Source: Bacteroidales bacterium
GTDB taxonomy: Bacteria; Bacteroidota; Bacteroidia; Bacteroidales; JAADJA01
DNA length: 64,000 bases
Reading direction: 5' to 3'
Assembly (NCBI GenBank): GCA_020438105.1
Contig: JAGQVE010000001.1
Coordinates: 62,001 to 126,000 of the forward strand
This document shows positions 52,446 to 62,714 of this stretch, one piece after another; position 1 is the first letter of the stretch, and each line of letters opens with the position of its first letter. The notes under the pieces are model-generated. The model saw nothing but the letters and a program-made list of their open reading frames with translations, had not been told where the DNA came from and did no database searches. A program made the translations under genes and the position numbers.

Positions 52446-53900
52446 TTAATCACTACGTTTTCGGGTCATTTCGTAATGCTCCAAAAACGGCTTCAACTGA
52501 TCGACTTTCAGGCGTTTGGCAATAATTTTTTTGCGGTTATCCAGTAAAAAAATGGTGGGGGTTACCCGTATATCATAAAGGTGATGATAATCCGGTGTAA
52601 CACTGCGTGTACCATTCACATGTATCCAGGGTAATTGCTCACTTTTAATAAACTTTTTCCAGGCTACCAGGTTGGTATCAGTGCATACAGCAAATACTTT
52701 AAAATCAAGGGAGTCCTCCTGATCCCAGGCTTTCAGTGCTTTTATTTCTTTGCGGCAATGGGCACAACCCTCTTCATAAAACAAAACGATGATATAGTTT
52801 GCATCCTGCCGGTATAAAGATGCAAACCCTCCGCTTGTATCCATGAGGATCATATTTGGGGCATCAGCTCCGATCAGGATATTTCTGAGGGCATCTGCTC
52901 TTTCTTCAAGGGTTTTCAGCGTTGATTTACCTGTCCAAAACGCCCTTCCTGTGGCATAATATTTATCAATCATGTGCACAAAAATCTCATCAAACCCCAT
53001 TACATTCGATGTTTCAAACTTATATGTAAGAAACCATACTGTATACTTGAAAGTCTCGGGATTGGTATCTACCCTTGCAATAAACTTATCTATCTCCCTG
53101 ATCAATGAGTCGGGGTGCTGATAAATGATTTTGTTGAAATAGGTTTCTAATTTCCTGTGATATACCGGTGTGCGCAACAAACGGGCATCGGCCGGATTAA
53201 AATCATCCCAGTAATGGTTCTTATAATATTGATAGGTAAATACCGAGTCCTGCAGTTGTTTTTGGGTTAGGCCAAAATCTTCCATCCTGGGATCATCCAT
53301 CCCTTTTAGCAATACCGAGACAAACAAATCAGGATTTTCATCAATAACATTTTGCTTGTATTTATTCAGCCGTGTTCTTAATGCCTGAACCGAGTCATTG
53401 ATCTGCTGCGCCGACAGACTCCCCTTTTCAAGCTTTGCCAGTGAATCGGCCAAATAATGAAGTGTTTTTTGAATATTTACATTATAAGTGATAAAATCAT
53501 AAAATACCGTGTTCTCCTTCGAATTTTTAAATTGAATTCCGGAATAAAGATCGGGCAGGGCAGTTTGAACTTTAAATTGTTGCTCTTTATTTGCGATTAT
53601 TTCAAAATATTTGTTGTTATGCTGACCGGCCAAAATGTAAACACCCGCTGGAAGCAATGTATCAGCTTCAAAAACAAAGTGCCCTTTTTTATCGAGATAA
53701 GCAGTGTCAGTAAGGTAAGTTTTATCCCCATAATAATTGGCAAGATAAAGCACCGAATCAGTGGCATCTTTTATTGTTATATCAATCCGGAATCCCGATT
53801 TACTTTGTGCAGTAATTTTTTCGTTCGCGACAATAATTGCAATCAAAGTCAATGCAATGACTCTGAAATACACCATCACTCTTTTATAATTATCATTCAT
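52446..53900 (-). CDS. Exported thioredoxin-fold protein (DUF4369/DUF5106 plus TlpA-like domain)
   Basis: A 484-residue exported protein: signal anchor (VIALTLIAIIVANEKITAQ), a DUF4369-like beta domain (about 35-130), a helical middle (about 140-335, DUF5106-like), and a C-terminal TlpA/thioredoxin domain (about 345-480). The redox motif is FYEEGCAHCRKEIKAL (C-x-x-C), and the cis-proline region is VTPTIFLLDNRKKII. It would handle thiols in the periplasm. It lies divergent from the selenoprotein gene 220 bases away, an interesting but unproven link. Confidence 0.88.
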   Translation of the reverse strand: MNDNYKRVMVYFRVIALTLIAIIVANEKITAQSKSGFRIDITIKDATDSVLYLANYYGDKTYLTDTAYLDKKGHFVFEADTLLPAGVYILAGQHNNKYFEIIANKEQQFKVQTALPDLYSGIQFKNSKENTVFYDFITYNVNIQKTLHYLADSLAKLEKGSLSAQQINDSVQALRTRLNKYKQNVIDENPDLFVSVLLKGMDDPRMEDFGLTQKQLQDSVFTYQYYKNHYWDDFNPADARLLRTPVYHRKLETYFNKIIYQHPDSLIREIDKFIARVDTNPETFKYTVWFLTYKFETSNVMGFDEIFVHMIDKYYATGRAFWTGKSTLKTLEERADALRNILIGADAPNMILMDTSGGFASLYRQDANYIIVLFYEEGCAHCRKEIKALKAWDQEDSLDFKVFAVCTDTNLVAWKKFIKSEQLPWIHVNGTRSVTPDYHHLYDIRVTPTIFLLDNRKKIIAKRLKVDQLKPFLEHYEMTRKRSD

Positions 53901-54120: not shown

Positions 54121-55896
54121 ATGACTAAAAAATTACTAATTGTTTTCTTCCTGATACTTGGCCTGACTTCCGGCTATGCTCAAACGGTTATTTGGCAGGA
54201 TGAGTTTGACAATGGTGAAGGCTGGAACATGCAGGACAACTGGGCGATAAACTACGGCACATTACAGTTCACATGGATGCCTGAAGCCACCAACTTTGAC
54301 CTTACTGCCACCTCATTGCCTTTTTACCTTGAAGAAAATTCTACCGAACTCGTGATCAATCAATTTCTTAGTATTTTTTATCCTTCTACGGATGAAACGG
54401 CTCAAATACGCCTCATTACGCAGGATGACCAAATAATAATCTGGGATTACCCACTCAGCAATGGCGATTGGGGATTATCTTCCGGTTCTGATCTTGTGAT
54501 TCCGATCCATGATTTTGCGGGCACGCAGGTTCAATTGCAATTCCGCACATTCGGGGTAACCACTTTCAATTGGAATCAATGGGATGTGAACGATGTTAGG
54601 GTATATGGCACTTTTGATAAAGACATCGCCACCACTAATATTTCTGGCCCAAAATCAGTTGAGCTTTTTGAAACAGGTATCTGGACGGTAGATGTTACAA
54701 ATTTCGGTACTCAATCACTTACCGGGTATACGGTCAGTATTTATGAAAACACAGGTAATGCGCTGATTGGCTCAGTGGAAGAAACGGAGGATATAGAAGC
54801 AGGTGAAACCCGTTTTTATGATATTCAATGGCAATCAAATGCAGCGTTTAATACCTCATTTAAGGCCGTTGTAGAATCGATTGATGATGAATTTCCGGGA
54901 AATAATAAGTCGGCCTCCATGTTTGTAAGAGTCAAACCCGACTTGCTTACCAATGTCCTTTTGTGGGACAATGACAATGGTATTCAATCAGTACTTGATC
55001 CTGAGCATGAAGATATGGTGGACGCTTCCACCGGATTAAAAAGAATTTTAAATGACGCCGATATTGATTACGAATTTGCGAGTAGTCTTCCCCAGAACCT
55101 CGATAATTATGACATAATTTTCGCCACGATGGGGAATTATTGCCTTAGCTGAGGTGGCACTCCCCCTGGTTTTGTAAATGCAACAGACCAGGACAAATTA
55201 GCCAACTACCTCGAAAATGGCGGAAATCTTTACATCGAAAGCGTTAATCTGGGACAGGATTATAATGGAACCGCGTTCTTTGACTTATTGGGAATTGAAT
55301 ACAAAGGAGATGGCGGACAATACGAAGTGGTAACTCTGAAAGGCAATTGTATGAATTGCACCGAATCACTCAAATATTATTATCTGGGTGAAATCAGCCC
55401 GCATTACAGTATAGATGAATTAAAGAGCGATGGTGCTGTGATGTTGATCAATAGTGAAGATGGCAAAGGAAGGTTCTTTGCTTACGAAAATGAAGGCTAT
55501 AAAGTAATCACTTCGTCAATAACTGCGGGGGCAATAGCCAATGATGATTCTCTCAACTTTAAGCCCTATTTATTTAGCGAATTTTTTAATTTTTTCCTGG
55601 GTTACAACCCAACAACAACCTTGCAGGAGAATATCAGTGGAATGCTGGATGGGAATATCTATCCTAATCCATCTCAATCTCAAACCAGTATCACTTTTAG
55701 CTTAGGCAAAGCTGACATGGTGAAAGTTGAAATATTCTCGATGAATGGACAATTGATCGAAACGTTGGCAAATGGATTTTATCCGGCAGGAAGACACCAG
55801 TTAAAATGGGGCAATGGCAGGGAAAAAGGAAGTTATGTATGCCGTATAATTAGCGGCAAACAGGTGATCACTAAAAAGTTGATCCTTGTAGATTAA
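54121..55896 (+). CDS. Candidate T9SS-secreted selenoprotein, in-frame TGA decoded as selenocysteine (U344)
   Basis: One frame from 54121 to 55896, broken only by TGA at 55150-55152; read as Sec it makes 591 residues. Signal peptide MTKKLLIVFFLILGLTSGYAQ; a beta-sandwich region (about 25-165); a CARDB-like Ig region (about 170-275); a Rossmann-like region (about 280-460) with YDIIFATMGNYCLSU, the motif C341-x-x-U344, and LANYLENGGNLYIESVN; a second C410-x-x-C413; and a T9SS type A sorting domain (about 510-591, NIYPNPSQSQTSITFSL). The downstream part has no own start or signal peptide, so readthrough is needed to make sense of its secretion domain. The selC, selA, selB, selD genes follow directly. 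Substrate unknown. Confidence 0.85.
55150..55192 (+). promoter_or_regulatory. Sec UGA codon and bacterial SECIS-like hairpin
   Basis: After the UGA (55150-55152), CCUGGU (55165-55170) pairs perfectly with ACCAGG (55187-55192). Above a small internal bulge (U71 against CAG), UUG (55172-55174) pairs with CAA (55181-55183), closing a six-base loop UAAAUG at 55175-55180. The loop lies 22-27 bases after the UGA, inside the range known for bacterial SECIS elements read by SelB. Pairing was done by eye, with no free-energy calculation. Confidence 0.6.
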
Positions 55897-55960
55897 CGGA
55901 TCGTTAGAGCAAGCTGTAAAAAACACCCGAAAAAATTCCAAATAAACCGGGTTAAAATAT

Positions 55961-56052
55961 AGAGAGGACGGGACTGGTGTTCCAACTGGTCTTCAAAACC
56001 AGTAACAGACGGATAAAACCGGCTGTGGCAGGTTCGATTCCTGCCCCCTCTG
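55961..56052 (+). tRNA. selC: tRNA-Sec (anticodon UCA)
   Basis: Selenocysteine tRNA of about 92 bases. The anticodon arm has a six-pair stem ACTGGT/ACCAGT around loop CTTCAAA (55991-55997), anticodon TCA at 55993-55995. A long variable arm (56005-56026) pairs CAG-CGG with CCG-CTG around ATAAAA with one mismatch. The T arm is GCAGG TTCGATT CCTGC (56028-56044). A D arm GGGAC/GTTCC has a four-base loop TGGT. The acceptor AGAGAGG/CCCCTCT is only seven pairs with one A-C mismatch, unlike the eight-pair bacterial norm, so exact ends are uncertain. No CCA is encoded. It lies between the selenoprotein gene and selA, all co-directional. Confidence 0.92.
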
Positions 56053-56056
56053 CTTA

Positions 56057-56106
56057 TGAACAACTTATCTTTCATAAGCGCAGCGCAATGAAAGGTTAGT
56101 TGTTCA
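56057..56106. repeat. Long inverted repeat directly after selC
   Basis: TGAACAACT (56057-56065) pairs with AGTTGTTCA (56098-56106), and inside CTTTCAT pairs with ATGAAAG around AGCGCAGCGC. It begins 4 bases after the tRNA end. It may help define the tRNA 3' end or stop transcription, but lacks a T run; its loop resembles the loops of the repeats next to it. Confidence 0.55.
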
Positions 56107-56402
56107 AATCCCGACAAACTGAAGCGAAGCGGAAGTTTCGTCGGGATTATACAATCCACAAACTGAAGCGAAGCGGAAGTTTCGTCGGGATTATACAATC
56201 CACAAACTGAAGCGAAGCGAAAGTTTCGTCGGGATTATCAAATCCACAAACCGCAGCGAAGCGAAAGTTTCGTCGGGATACTGAAACCAAATACGACTTT
56301 CACCTAAGTTAAATGTTAAAATCCCGACAAACCGCAGCAAAGCGAAGGTTTCGTCGGGATTATCAAATCCACAAACCGCAGCCAAGCGAAAGTTTCGTCG
56401 GT
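56107..56402. repeat. Array of six degenerate palindromic repeats between selC and selA
   Basis: About six copies with a period near 44 bases in tandem stretches. Each holds AAACnGnAGCGAAGCG-AAGTTTCGTCGGGA, with ends CCCGAC and GTCGGG forming a hairpin. Copies start at about 56110, 56159, 56203, 56247, 56324 and 56372; copy four is followed by 44 unrelated bases, and the last is truncated. The frames through them give repeated peptides only because the DNA repeats. There are no unique spacers, so it is not CRISPR; it looks like a dispersed REP-type element. Confidence 0.8.
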
Positions 56403-56468
56403 CGATAACCCTCAATCAATTCAATCCCCCAATACTTCAAATCATTTATAGGCAAATAATTGCAACCA

Positions 56469-57881
56469 ATGCAAGAAAAACAAGACATATTCAAAAAGAT
56501 TCCGGGCGTAGACAAACTCCTCAATGCACCGGATATTAAGGAATTGATCAGCAAATTCAATCCCGAACTGGTGAAGTTTGCTATCCGTGAGACCTTGAAC
56601 GGCATAAGGCAAAACATCAGTAAATTCAAAAGTCCTCCGTCAGAGGATTATATCATTCACAAAGTCACTGAGTTCATCCAAAACCTTACAAGCAAAAACC
56701 TGAAACCGGTCTTCAATTCTACCGGCGTAATCGTTCACACCAACCTTGGCAGAGCACCTTTCAGCGATCAGGTGCTGATCGAAGCGATGGAAACACTCAA
56801 AGGATACAACAACCTTGAATTCGATCTGGATAAAGGCGAACGCGGTTCGCGCCATTCGCACCTCACCCCAAAACTCAAATATTTAACCGGGGCCGAAGAT
56901 GTTTTGGTAGTAAACAACAATGCCGCTGCTGTGATGCTGGTTTTGCGCACTTTTGCAAAAAACAATGAGGTGGTCGTTTCCAGGGGGGAATTGATTGAGA
57001 TCGGTGGCTCCTTCCGGTTGCCGGAGATCATGGCTGCATCTGATTGTAATATGGTGGAAATAGGCGCTACCAATAAAACCCACCTGAAAGACTATGAAAA
57101 AGCTATTTCTGAAAAAACTGCCATGCTTTTCAAAGCTCATAAATCGAACTATGTCATTAAAGGATTTACCCAGGAAGTGGATTTGCCGGAGCTGGTCAAA
57201 TTAGGGAAAAAACACAATATTCCGGTGGTTTACGACATGGGTTCGGGATTGCTTCGAAAAACCAATGTTCCGGTCTTAAAAGGCGAACCCGACGTTCGGG
57301 AAACCTTAGCACAGGGAATTGACCTGGTTACTTTCAGCGGCGACAAACTTATTGGTGGCCCTCAAGCAGGTATCATCGCCGGGAAAGCAAAATATATCTC
57401 CATCCTTAAAAAGGAACCAATGGTTCGGGCACTTCGTGTTGGAAAAACCACACTGGCATTCATGGAAACAGCTTTGAGCCATTACCTGGATGATAAACTG
57501 CTGGAAAAACACAACACCATTTTCAGTACTTTGCAGCAACCGCTCTCTGTTTTAAAAAAGCGCGCTGAAAAACTGCAGAAAGCCTTAGGAAAGTTTGAAA
57601 TCCACTCGGAGCTTACCGAAAGCGAAGGCTATTGCGGTGGCGGAGCCTTACCTGATGAGGCGGTTAAAAGCTTTGCTGTAAAACTTACAGGTGATTTTGA
57701 ATCAAACAAATCAAGGGCATCCTTCATGGAGAAATTGTATTTTGCCCTCATGCAACAGCCGAAACCGGTGATCGCAATCTTGAAAAAAGGTGAACTCTAT
57801 TTTGATGTACTCACCTTACAGGATAAAGATATTGATCTGCTTGCAACAATCGTTAACCAAACAAAAGCCAGCCTCGCATGA
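56469..57881 (+). CDS. selA: L-seryl-tRNA(Sec) selenium transferase
   Basis: Turns seryl-tRNA(Sec) into selenocysteinyl-tRNA(Sec) using selenophosphate and PLP. From the ATG at 56469 (MQEKQDIFKKIPGVDKLL) it has 470 residues, close to E. coli's 463; a TTG at 56460 would add three. Motifs: N-terminal tRNA-binding domain, FNSTGVIVHTNLGRAPFS, NNNAAAVMLVLRTFA, SRGELIEIGGSFRLPEIM and VTFSGDKLIGGPQAGIIAG with the PLP Lys293. Its stop overlaps the selB start by four bases (ATGA). Confidence 0.96.
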   Translation: MQEKQDIFKKIPGVDKLLNAPDIKELISKFNPELVKFAIRETLNGIRQNISKFKSPPSEDYIIHKVTEFIQNLTSKNLKPVFNSTGVIVHTNLGRAPFSDQVLIEAMETLKGYNNLEFDLDKGERGSRHSHLTPKLKYLTGAEDVLVVNNNAAAVMLVLRTFAKNNEVVVSRGELIEIGGSFRLPEIMAASDCNMVEIGATNKTHLKDYEKAISEKTAMLFKAHKSNYVIKGFTQEVDLPELVKLGKKHNIPVVYDMGSGLLRKTNVPVLKGEPDVRETLAQGIDLVTFSGDKLIGGPQAGIIAGKAKYISILKKEPMVRALRVGKTTLAFMETALSHYLDDKLLEKHNTIFSTLQQPLSVLKKRAEKLQKALGKFEIHSELTESEGYCGGGALPDEAVKSFAVKLTGDFESNKSRASFMEKLYFALMQQPKPVIAILKKGELYFDVLTLQDKDIDLLATIVNQTKASLA

Positions 57882-59836
57882 AACACGTGATCATCGGAAC
57901 AGCAGGCCATGTCGACCATGGAAAAACGGCCCTCATTAAAGCCCTGACCAACTTCGACTGCGATACACATAAAGAGGAAAAAGAGCGTGGCATTACCATC
58001 AACCTCGGATTTACCCACCTCGATCTTCCCTCCGGAGAATCAGTAGGCATTGTGGATGTTCCGGGCCATAAGGATTTCATTAAAACCATGGTGGCCGGGG
58101 CATATGGCATCGACATTGTTTTGCTGGTGGTGGCAGCCGACAGCGGCATCATGCCCCAAACCCGGGAGCACCTGCAGATCATCGAAATGCTGGGCGTTCA
58201 GCATGGTATTATTGTGCTCAATAAAGCCGATCTGGTTGATGAAGAGATGATAGAACTCAACCAGCTTGAGATTTCAGAATTTGTGGAAGGCACCAAACTC
58301 GAAAACGCACCCATTGTGCCGGTTTCATCACTTTCAGGAAATGGAATTGACCTGCTGATCGAAGAAATCGAAAAGATCATCCCAAAGGTAAAAGAGAAAG
58401 AGATCACCGACCGCTTTCGTATGTATATCGATCGTATATTCAATGTGAAAGGGATTGGGTTTGTAGTCACCGGTTCGGTGCTTGAGGGAAAGATCAGTCA
58501 GGGAAAAGATTTATACCTGCTTCCGGGAAAAGCTAAGAAAGTGAAGATCCGGGGACTCGAACGGCACGGCAGTCCGACAGAAGAAGTTTTCGTGGGCGAC
58601 CGCGCAGCTATCAACCTGGCCGGGTTAAAGTTTGAAGATTATGTTCGTGGTATGGTTTTGAGCAACAAACAACTCGAAGAAACCGAAATGATCGATGCCA
58701 CCTGTACCATCTTTGATGAAACCACGGTTTTGGGCGTTTGGTCGAATGTGATTTTTTACACAGGCACTTTTGAGTGCAATGCCCGCATACATCTATTGGA
58801 TAAAGATGAACTTTCGGCCGGACAAACCGGAATTGTTCAGTTACACCTCAGTAAACCGGCTGTATTGGTGAACAAGGATAAATTCATTATCCGAAATACC
58901 TCAAACGACCTTACCTATGGGGGCGGAACGGTGATTGATGTGCAACCGCTGCATCATAAACGCCGAACAGAAAAGGTGATCAGTGAATTGACCGAGCTGG
59001 TGGATGCCACGCTCAACAGCGACAAGCTGATTAACCTGGTTAAAATTGAACTTGGAAAAACCAACATTCCGGAATTTGCTTCCGCTATCGCCTCTAAAAT
59101 TCACAAAACAACTGACGAAGTAGTTGCAGAATGTGAAGAAAATCAAAATAAGGAGGTGTTGATTTTCAAATCCGGCGATCAGGTTATTCTGCTTCGAAAT
59201 AACAGGGATGCTTTTTACCGCAAGCAGGTTTTGGAAGAAATCAATTCATATCATCAAAAAAATCCAATTTTAGAAGAAGGGCTTGAAACCATCGATTTTT
59301 ATGGCAAGTTCGGATTCGGGACCAATGAGGCCGGTAAAATTTATCTCGATCATGTGATGAGCAGTATTTATCAGGAAGGATTAATTAAAAAAGTGGCCAA
59401 CACCTGGGCCCTGAAAGACCACGAGGTAAAGATTGATCCCAAAACCCAAAATCAGTTGAATTGGCTGGAGCAAACCATTCTGAATGTTGGGATGGATAAA
59501 CCCATGAGCTCTGAAATTGAAGAAAAGGCACATCAGGAAAAGATCAACAAAGACCGGTTGAAAATGATGCTAAAATTCCTGCGGAAAGAAGGCAAACTGG
59601 TATTTTTCGAGGGGGAATACATTCACAGTGAAATCGTGAACCGAAGCCGGAAAATATTGTTGGAGAAAATAGTCACAAAAGCTGATGGTATCAACGAAAA
59701 GGAGTTCAGAGAAATGATTGAAGGAACAAAAAAACTGGTGCAGATGCTGCTCGGAATTTTCCTGGAAGAAGGCAGTGTGATCAAGCCCACTTTTTATATC
59801 CTGATCACTGAAAAAGGAAAAAACATGTTGAATTAA
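57878..59836 (+). CDS. selB: Selenocysteine-specific translation elongation factor
   Basis: Delivers Sec-tRNA(Sec) to UGA codons by binding the SECIS hairpin. The 652 residues have an EF-Tu-like GTPase first: GTAGHVDHGKTALIKAL (G1), ERGITINLGF, DVPGHKDFIKTM (G3), LNKADL (G4). Domains II-III (about 175-390) follow, then winged-helix repeats at the C-terminus (about 400-652) that would bind the mRNA hairpin. Length is a little greater than E. coli SelB. It is coupled to selA by a 4-base overlap and ends 26 bases before yedF. Confidence 0.96.
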   Translation: MKHVIIGTAGHVDHGKTALIKALTNFDCDTHKEEKERGITINLGFTHLDLPSGESVGIVDVPGHKDFIKTMVAGAYGIDIVLLVVAADSGIMPQTREHLQIIEMLGVQHGIIVLNKADLVDEEMIELNQLEISEFVEGTKLENAPIVPVSSLSGNGIDLLIEEIEKIIPKVKEKEITDRFRMYIDRIFNVKGIGFVVTGSVLEGKISQGKDLYLLPGKAKKVKIRGLERHGSPTEEVFVGDRAAINLAGLKFEDYVRGMVLSNKQLEETEMIDATCTIFDETTVLGVWSNVIFYTGTFECNARIHLLDKDELSAGQTGIVQLHLSKPAVLVNKDKFIIRNTSNDLTYGGGTVIDVQPLHHKRRTEKVISELTELVDATLNSDKLINLVKIELGKTNIPEFASAIASKIHKTTDEVVAECEENQNKEVLIFKSGDQVILLRNNRDAFYRKQVLEEINSYHQKNPILEEGLETIDFYGKFGFGTNEAGKIYLDHVMSSIYQEGLIKKVANTWALKDHEVKIDPKTQNQLNWLEQTILNVGMDKPMSSEIEEKAHQEKINKDRLKMMLKFLRKEGKLVFFEGEYIHSEIVNRSRKILLEKIVTKADGINEKEFREMIEGTKKLVQMLLGIFLEEGSVIKPTFYILITEKGKNMLN

Positions 59837-62145: not shown

Positions 62146-62177
62146 TTTGTTATTGATTCATTATTGGTGTATTTTTG
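62146..62177 (+). promoter_or_regulatory. Promoter of the parDE module
   Basis: TTTG (62146-62149), 20 bases, TATTTTTG (62170-62177): the cleanest Bacteroidota promoter in the window, 17 bases before the ParD ATG. Confidence 0.68.
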
Positions 62178-62194
62178 CATCAAAACTACCTACT

Positions 62195-62434
62195 ATGGCA
62201 CGACAAAGTATTTCCTTTACAGAACCGAATGATGAATGGTTAAAATCACAAGTTGAAAGCAAAGAGTATGCGAGCAAAAGTGAGATTATCAATGATTTGA
62301 TAAGGCAAGCTAGAAAACAACAAGTTCAAGTTGACTGGATAAGAGCTAAACTGGAACAATCTGAAAACAGCGGATTTACGGACGCTTCAAAAGACCAGAT
62401 TTTGAAAGAATCAAAGTCGCTGATTAATGGCTAA
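62195..62434 (+). CDS. parD: ParD-family antitoxin
   Basis: A 79-residue antitoxin from the ATG at 62195 (MARQSISFTEPNDEWLKSQ); the promoter at 62170 rules out the longer frame. A ribbon-helix-helix DNA-binding half (about 1-45) with SISFTEPNDEWLKSQV and SKSEIINDLIRQAR, then a toxin-binding tail. It represses its own operon and neutralises the ParE toxin. The toxin gene overlaps it by 8 bases. Confidence 0.93.
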   Translation: MARQSISFTEPNDEWLKSQVESKEYASKSEIINDLIRQARKQQVQVDWIRAKLEQSENSGFTDASKDQILKESKSLING

Positions 62435-62714
62435 TTACAGATTGAGCAATCAGGCCAAAGATGACTTAATTCGAATTCATCATTACGGAGCTGAAAAATT
62501 CGGGTTAGCCCAGGCTGATAAATATTTTGATTCGTTTTTTAAATATTTTGACATCATAAATGAGCGACCATTTTCATTTGAATCAGTTGATTATATAAAA
62601 AGTGGATACAGACGTTGTGTTTGTGGATCTGACAGCATTTACTTCAGAATAAATGATGGTATTGTTGAAATTATGGCAATTATAGGAAGACAAGACTTAA
62701 ATGCTATTATTTAA
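62427..62714 (+). CDS. parE: ParE/RelE-superfamily toxin
   Basis: A 95-residue ParE-type toxin: MANYRLSNQAKDDLIRIHHY opening, helical hairpin FGLAQADKYFDSFFKYFDII, and C-terminal strands SGYRRCVCGSDSIYFRINDG, IVEIMAIIGRQD with the final Arg-x-Asp. ParE toxins act on DNA gyrase or topoisomerase; the actual target here is untested. Overlap with the ParD gene gives coupled synthesis. Confidence 0.92.
   Translation: MANYRLSNQAKDDLIRIHHYGAEKFGLAQADKYFDSFFKYFDIINERPFSFESVDYIKSGYRRCVCGSDSIYFRINDGIVEIMAIIGRQDLNAII

What the first reader, a model, noticed from the sequence alone, without database searches (positions are those of the whole stretch)
54121..55896. Candidate new selenoprotein: a type IX secreted cargo with an in-frame UGA
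The sequence shows one continuous frame with a single TGA at codon 344, no other stop, and identical frame on both sides. The protein before it has a signal peptide; the protein after it has a T9SS type A sorting domain that is useless without that signal peptide. The gene lies 64 bases from tRNA-Sec and upstream of selA-selB-yedF-selD. I know of no described selenoprotein delivered by type IX secretion, so this would be a new class of extracellular selenoprotein.
Basis: partly seen in the sequence, partly recalled or inferred. Interest (0 to 1): 0.95.

Follow-up and report, generated by a model that had tools for sequence, protein, structure and literature searches.

The report
Selenoproteins exported by type IX secretion
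A gene next to a bacterium's selenocysteine genes carries one in-frame UGA, shared by all 27 copies examined, and likely makes a selenium-containing protein that is predicted to leave the cell by type IX secretion and would do redox chemistry outside; no selenoprotein exported this way turned up in the papers searched.

Summary
Frame 54121-55896 has one internal stop, TGA at codon 344, 64 bases before tRNA-Sec and selA-selB-yedF-selD. Relatives occur in 14 of 17 same-genus genomes and, full-length, in 13 of 393 sampled genomes of the order. All 27 copies that span the site have TGA there, in an invariant C-x-x-U-[GS]-x-T-P-P-G motif. All 13 genomes lie among the 42 SelB-positive of 393, and the three genus members that lack the gene lack SelB. 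Just after the UGA lie the most codon-conserved stretch and a partly covarying hairpin; codons after it are under purifying selection. All 25 complete copies tested match the T9SS type A sorting domain. No Cys form was found in two searches of 5.8 billion proteins. The Sec lies in a predicted glutamine-amidotransferase-like domain. The genome has two more T9SS-tailed genes with UGA, thioredoxin-like with UxxC. In that family all five copies read from SelB-less genus members have Cys instead. So there appears to be a T9SS-delivered selenoproteome. Two genomes of the order with such UGA genes showed no SelB. Sec insertion and export rest on comparison; the redox role is inferred; nothing was tested at the bench.

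The parts
54121..55896 (+). Selenoprotein gene, 591 residues with UGA as codon 344
   Evidence: one TGA and no other stop in 14 of 17 genus genomes and in 17 of 17 full-length copies in the order sample
54121..54180 (+). Signal peptide (about residues 1-20)
   Evidence: Read from the sequence by eye; helix 2-18 in the model; no predictor was run
54184..54930 (+). Beta-sandwich domain (about residues 22-165) and Ig-like, CARDB-like domain (about 166-270)
   Evidence: Strands in the model; CARDB at E up to 0.1 in 9 of 10 members (below the cut-off in the window protein)
54931..55596 (+). Sec domain (about residues 271-492), class I glutamine-amidotransferase-like fold
55141..55152 (+). C-x-x-U motif: Cys341 (55141-55143) and the UGA for Sec344 (55150-55152)
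   Evidence: Invariant in 27 of 27 copies
55166..55191 (+). Candidate bSECIS hairpin; apical loop 55176-55182, 23 nt after the UGA
55657..55887 (+). T9SS type A sorting domain (residues 513-589)
   Evidence: TIGR04183, 47.3 bits; matched by 25 of 25 members of A10
55961..56053 (+). tRNA-Sec
   Evidence: beside the gene in 13 of 14 genus loci
56460..57881 (+). selA (listed from TTG 56460; an ATG lies at 56469)
   Evidence: TIGR00474, 537 bits
57878..59836 (+). selB
   Evidence: TIGR00475, 296.8 bits
59863..60474 (+). yedF
   Evidence: TIGR03527, 184.3 bits
60474..61511 (+). selD (no in-frame TGA; Cys type)
   Evidence: TIGR00476, 364.3 bits; sequence
52446..53900 (-). Divergent TlpA-like gene (DUF4369, DUF5106, AhpC-TSA), a possible redox partner
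   Evidence: found upstream in 4 of 14 loci (many of the other loci are short)

Best explanation
The gene has one UGA, in frame in all 27 copies that span it, and this UGA is likely read as selenocysteine, giving a protein that is predicted to cross the outer membrane by type IX secretion and would act outside the cell through a Cys-x-x-Sec redox pair. Steps: (1) SelA, SelD and the neighbouring tRNA-Sec would make Sec-tRNA, and SelB would bring it to codon 344, guided by the hairpin just after the UGA (the genes and the conserved hairpin are shown; their action is inferred). (2) The signal peptide would take the chain to the periplasm, and the C-terminal type A domain would take it through SprA to the surface or medium (domain and SprA gene shown; route inferred). 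(3) Cys341 and Sec344 lie in one loop of an amidotransferase-like domain that also holds invariant Glu373, His428, Asp432 and Arg451 (invariance shown; geometry inferred). They would cycle between thiol/selenol and a selenenylsulfide and reduce a disulfide, peroxide or similar oxidant outside the cell. (4) Electrons would come from the T9SS-tailed UxxC thioredoxin-like proteins of the same genome or from the TlpA-like neighbour (the weakest step). My estimates: Sec insertion 0.96, T9SS export 0.9, extracellular thiol/selenol redox role 0.65, relay with the UxxC proteins 0.35.
For: One internal TGA and no other stop in 14 of 17 genus genomes and in 17 of 17 full-length copies of the order sample; C-x-x-U-[GS]-x-T-P-P-G in 27 of 27 copies. 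SelB: all 13 genomes with a full-length copy are among the 42 SelB-positive of 393 (hypergeometric 3.6e-14); the 3 genus genomes without the gene have no SelB over the cut-off. Beside tRNA-Sec in 13 of 14 genus loci, with selA and selB next in 13 of 14. RNA: most codon-conserved ten-codon window of 444 begins 6 codons after the UGA; folding energy lowest there on average; covariation, 9 cells with changes on both sides against 2.0 in shuffles. dN/dS after the UGA 0.06 to 0.16 in three close pairs. TIGR04183 in 25 of 25 members tested, SprA in the genome. Second family: UGA at the catalytic Cys of T9SS-tailed thioredoxin-like proteins in 19 of 28 genus copies read, Cys in 5 of 5 from SelB-less genomes.
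Against: No protein or label evidence. The hairpin breaks one published bSECIS rule (G among the first two loop positions) in nearly all copies, the own sequence alone is not unusual against synonymous shuffles (p 0.22; 8 of 25 copies below 0.05), a window 30 bases before the UGA is almost as stable (-11.6 against -12.0), and 12 of 26 copies break one lower pair. No Cys homolog supports the residue in this family. The Sec loop has low confidence in the model (block mean 51). No redox assay, no known relative with a function. In the second family, G049 and G160 have the UGA but no SelB match at 1e-65. Relatedness of genomes was not corrected in the statistics.
Confidence: 0.65

Rival explanations
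1. It is a selenoprotein exported by T9SS, but Sec344 with Cys341 binds a metal, selenium species or electrophile, or serves as an amidotransferase-like nucleophile, not as a redox pair.
For: The fold of the Sec domain is amidotransferase-like in the model, and invariant Glu373, His428, Asp432 and Arg451 stand in the same domain. No homolog with a known redox function was found.
Against: C-x-x-U is a redox-type motif in many listed selenoproteins (PMC13188914, section 7). The other UGA genes found in the genome are thioredoxin-like.
Confidence: 0.26
2. It is a selenoprotein, but the sorting domain does not lead it out; it stays in the periplasm or on the inner face of the outer membrane.
For: Export was not tested; only sequence domains and SprA were found. 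The other T9SS parts were not searched.
Against: TIGR04183 is kept in 25 of 25 members tested and P-N-P of the tail is invariant in A10; the T9SS machinery gene SprA is full-length (2601.5 bits).
Confidence: 0.06
3. The UGA is a plain stop: two neighbouring genes, a 343-residue secreted protein and a separate tail protein.
For: Public annotation splits it so: 12 first halves of 343-346 residues and 13 second halves.
Against: The region between the UGA and the first start codons is conserved as protein (T-P-P-G, Gln357, Gly368, Tyr371, Glu373) and the start that gene callers chose differs between copies. The stop is never TAA or TAG in 27 copies. The second half has no signal peptide. SelB tracks the gene.
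Confidence: 0.02
4. UGA is read as another amino acid by read-through or a changed genetic code.
For: The frame is open on both sides.
Against: TGA ends 20 ORFs of 100 or more codons in the window; the gene is found with SelB and beside tRNA-Sec; in the second family the UGA stands where relatives have the catalytic Cys.
Confidence: 0.01

Closest known systems
Known CxxU and UxxC selenoproteins of prokaryotes (119 families and subfamilies, Table 1 of PMC13188914, read)
   Same: One Sec, CxxU motif, Sec machinery near by
   Different: None is described there with T9SS ('type ix' and 'secreted' occur 0 times in the text). Most are said to have thioredoxin-like folds; this one has an amidotransferase-like domain in the model and no Cys form in our searches
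CTP synthase C-terminal region-related selenoprotein (glutamine amidotransferase, GxUxG, NF004836; table entry in PMC13188914)
   Same: Sec in an amidotransferase-type protein
   Different: Motif GxUxG there; here CxxU in a loop before the G-G-N-L-Y strand. NF004836 did not match the window protein at E 0.001
Predicted secreted selenoproteins of the Global Ocean Sampling study: trypsin-like serine protease, putative secreted MucD with CxxU (PMC2398784, passages)
   Same: Sec in a protein predicted to be secreted
   Different: Other families, with Cys homologs listed; no T9SS in the passages seen
Secreted ResA/TlpA-like thioredoxins with a T9SS tail (second family here, NF002854 and TIGR04183)
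   Same: T9SS tail and Sec in the same genomes
   Different: Unrelated fold, UxxC, and Cys forms exist
Sec-free domain paralogs in long T9SS-type proteins and in a zinc carboxypeptidase (P0012)
   Same: Same domain, 25-31% identity
   Different: About six residues of the Sec loop are missing in the alignments shown; no Sec

Membership tests
Bacterial selenoprotein | In-frame UGA conserved among relatives, with coding selection on both sides | tested here: met
   27 of 27 copies; dN/dS after the UGA 0.06-0.16 in three close pairs
Bacterial selenoprotein | Sec machinery (tRNA-Sec, SelA, SelB, SelD) in the genome | tested here: met
   SelB in all 13 genomes of the order sample with a full-length gene
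Bacterial selenoprotein | Homologs with Cys in place of Sec | tested here: not met
   None found. This is usual for known families, not required by definition. The second family meets it
Bacterial selenoprotein | Selenium shown in the protein | not testable with these tools
   Needs 75Se or mass spectrometry
bSECIS element (model in PMC13188914, section 5) | Apical loop of 3-9 nt, upper stem of 4-16 bp, loop 16-37 nt from the UGA, energy of -7.5 or lower | tested here: met
   Common structure: 7-nt loop, 9 pairs, 23 nt; energies -8.3 to -20.1 in 26 copies folded; individual minimum-energy folds vary
bSECIS element (model in PMC13188914, section 5) | G in the first two loop positions | tested here: not met
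   Commonest loop is AAAUGCA; L062 has AGUUGGA. The review says that some bSECIS elements do not fit the model
T9SS type A cargo | C-terminal type A sorting domain | tested here: met
   TIGR04183 47.3 bits; 25 of 25 members
T9SS type A cargo | Signal peptide | tested here: inconclusive
   Seen by eye in the copies; no predictor available
T9SS type A cargo | T9SS in the genome | tested here: met
   SprA, TIGR04189, 2601.5 bits; other parts not searched
T9SS type A cargo | Export that depends on the T9SS | not testable with these tools
   Needs a mutant
Class I glutamine amidotransferase | Fold | tested here: met
Class I glutamine amidotransferase | Nucleophile Cys in a G-x-C-x-G elbow (motif recalled) | tested here: not met
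   The only invariant Cys/Sec columns in 25 copies are 341 and 344
Thioredoxin-fold redox selenoprotein | Thioredoxin fold of the Sec domain | tested here: inconclusive
   The model matches amidotransferase-like folds; a fold not listed is not excluded

The most novel reading that the evidence does not exclude
Sec-using Bacteroidales run an extracellular selenoproteome: type IX secretion delivers at least two unrelated selenoprotein families to the cell surface, a Sec-only amidotransferase-like CxxU protein built into the sel operon and T9SS-tailed UxxC thioredoxins, which together form a selenol redox relay outside the cell and are a main reason why these bacteria keep the Sec machinery.
Probability: 0.4. 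Interest if true: 0.93.

Novelty: new variant of a known kind. Interest (0 to 1): 0.86.

Why it matters
Selenols oxidise easily, so a secretion route used by several selenoproteins would show that some bacteria spend their costliest amino acid on chemistry outside the cell. A family without a known Cys form would be missed by methods that look for Sec/Cys pairs. Public annotation now splits the gene into two proteins, and one second half is named only for its sorting domain. The tight link to the sel genes makes it testable what keeps Sec use alive in this group.

Tried and rejected
Plain stop or changed code: rejected. Formate dehydrogenase as the Sec client of the genus: TIGR01591 gave 27 matches at 1e-40 in 13 of 17 genomes (one over the family cut-off), none with an internal stop. 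A Cys form: none in two searches of 5.8 billion proteins (which scored 7994 and 7637 candidates), in 393 genomes of the order at 1e-30, or in 395 of the phylum at 1e-20 (only the own genome matched). The full-length model was weak (pLDDT 66.8) and its Foldseek list was filled by beta-sandwich proteins. Alignment A6 was misaligned and not used. The thioredoxin fold is not in the rows; that proves nothing. PDB sequence search gave only tail, FlgD-like and Ig-like matches and one hit at E 0.92. tRNA-Sec by Rfam in the genus: the tool counts 14 of 17 genomes over the cut-off, but one of these, G003, has 47.3 bits against a cut-off of 47, at the level of second hits in other genomes, and I take it for background; the 13 hits of 57-65 bits lie beside the gene. 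A paper by Haft and Tolstoy (2025) is not held, so an earlier report there is not excluded. Paper searches listed no T9SS selenoprotein by title or abstract; the one paper holding both terms was seen only in the listing, the two by passages (unrelated). PMC13188914: sections 5 and 9, parts 1 and 2 of section 7, and passages. PMC12013277, PMC5029168, PMC2398784: passages.

Full report
OBSERVATION. Frame 54121-55896 reads as 591 residues with one TGA, codon 344, and ends in TAA. Of 20 ATG-started ORFs of 100 or more codons that end in TGA in the window, only this one runs on in frame for 100 or more codons. tRNA-Sec begins 64 bases after the stop codon, and selA, selB, yedF and selD follow. The bacterium is not named; one relative, given as the same genus by the tool, lies on a contig of the same length as a record titled Bacteroidales bacterium, so the window likely comes from the Bacteroidales.

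RELATIVES. In 17 genomes of the genus 14 have a relative (43-58% identity apart from the own copy) with exactly one TGA and no other stop; G002, G003 and G008 have only weak domain or tail matches. In 393 sampled genomes of the order 14 match at 1e-30: 13 hold 17 full-length copies, each with one TGA, and G350 keeps only a piece of about 120 residues (about 95-214) with a TAG. In 395 genomes of the phylum only the own one matches at 1e-20. I read 14 genus copies and 13 further copies: all 27 have TGA in the same place and the motif C-x-x-U-[GS]-x-T-P-P-G. L009 was dropped as the same contig as the G009 copy; L068 and L070 are near-identical and counted apart; the G012 copy is cut by its contig end 43 codons after the site.

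SEC MACHINERY. SelB is over its cut-off in 12 of 17 genus genomes. The other five are the three without the gene, G013 (contig ends about 41 codons into selB) and G012 (contig ends in the gene). In the order sample 42 of 393 have SelB; all 13 genomes with a full-length gene are among them (hypergeometric 3.6e-14; shared ancestry not corrected), and G350 is not. Most SelB-positive genomes (29 of 42) lack the gene, so SelB has other clients there. In 11 of the 13 the gene lies on the SelB contig within 4 kb; in G282 and G348 it does not. In the genus, gene, tRNA-Sec, selA and selB follow each other in 13 of 14 loci. In the order, tRNA-Sec lay in the fetched stretches of 4 of 13 copies.

RNA SIGNAL. 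Folding 45-base pieces along 25 genes, the mean energy is lowest directly after the UGA (-12.0 kcal/mol), though a piece 30 bases before it is close (-11.6) and single genes rank from 1st to 21st of 91 positions (one of 65). Against synonymous codon draws the mean z is -1.39, below zero in 24 of 25, with p under 0.05 in 8 of 25; the window's own copy is not unusual (p 0.22). Among codons for the same residue in 24 copies, the ten-codon window that starts 6 codons after the UGA is the most conserved of 444 (0.77; mean 0.43), and the ten best windows all start 3 to 12 codons after it. For the hairpin 55166-55191 in 26 copies, 88.9% of 234 cells pair (86.2% in shuffles, at most 50.9% when slid), 9 cells have changes on both sides (2.0 in shuffles, 0 of 500 reach it) and 4 pairs do (5 of 500 reach it); further pair types, 8 against 6.9, are not unusual, and one lower pair is broken in 12 of 26. 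Loop size, stem, spacing and energy fit the published bSECIS model; the rule of an early G in the loop is not kept (PMC13188914, section 5).

NO CYS FORM. Searches with the read-through protein and with a profile of ten copies found 10 and 12 family entries (10 shared), all 343-346 residues long, that is, cut at the UGA. The 13 entries of the other half start after it. In this family I found no entry with Cys at the site.

A SECOND T9SS FAMILY. AhpC-TSA gave 21 matches in the own genome, two with an internal TGA. Both are thioredoxin-like with a signal-peptide-like start, UxxC and a type A sorting domain. A genus search gave 42 rows, 20 with a TGA. Of 30 loci fetched, two were dropped (L126 cut before the site, L139 a different protein); of 28 read, 19 have U and 9 have Cys there. 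All 5 copies from G002, G003 and G008 have Cys; of the 23 others 19 have U (Fisher 0.0013). All 28 match TIGR04183. The RNA after the U codon is more stable than after the Cys codon (means -12.2 and -8.1; Mann-Whitney 0.002), although one Cys copy of a SelB-positive genome reaches -14.2. In the order 53 of 393 genomes match at 1e-40 with 70 rows; 15 rows in 12 genomes have a TGA, and in all 15 it stands at the catalytic Cys. Ten of the 12 genomes are SelB-positive; G049 and G160 are not. T9SS tails of the order-level copies were not tested. In G011 and G014 a member of this wider family lies just after selD.

KNOWN WORK. The 2026 review PMC13188914 lists 119 families, none described with T9SS in the parts read. 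No NCBIfam selenoprotein model of June 2026 matched either family at E 0.001. Secreted selenoproteins of other kinds were predicted in PMC2398784 (passages). The nine new families of deep-Sep all have Cys homologs (PMC12013277, passages), which this family lacks in our searches.

CONCLUSION. Sec insertion is strongly supported by comparison, T9SS export is well supported by sequence, the redox role is inferred from CxxU, and the relay with UxxC partners is a proposal. Novelty: selenoproteins are a known kind; the T9SS route, the amidotransferase-like scaffold and the lack of a Cys form make this a new variant.

Noticed in passing
L108:1682-2458 (-) and L109:1339-2601 (-), own-genome contigs C88 and C51: Two more genes with an in-frame UGA: thioredoxin-like, UxxC, T9SS type A tail.
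   Followed up: yes
L068, L069 and others: G009:C43, G016:C225: A UGA copy and a copy without TGA of the thioredoxin-like family lie side by side in G009 and G016 (coordinates).
   Followed up: no
L085 (G350): A remnant of the CxxU gene, about 120 residues with a TAG, in a genome without a SelB match: looks like decay after loss of Sec use.
   Followed up: partly
L061 (G005) against window 55960-58623: tRNA-Sec and selA-selB are 88-89% identical in DNA to the window while the selenoprotein gene gave no blastn match and its first half is 42% identical: a mosaic locus.
   Followed up: partly
window 56095-56401: Tandem repeats holding TTTCGTCGGGAT (5 in the window, all here; 0.01 expected), between tRNA-Sec and selA.
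   Followed up: partly
G113:C53 and C65, G173:C18, G282, G348: Four genomes have two copies of the CxxU gene, next to each other in G173, which also has two SelB matches, as does G348; the G113 copies have frames of 871-888 codons.
   Followed up: no
window 62147-62714: Two small overlapping genes that look like a ParD/ParE-type antitoxin-toxin pair (by eye from the translations; not searched).
   Followed up: no
G049:C37 and G160:C83: UxxC UGA genes in genomes without a SelB match at 1e-65: missing contigs or real loss, not settled.
   Followed up: partly
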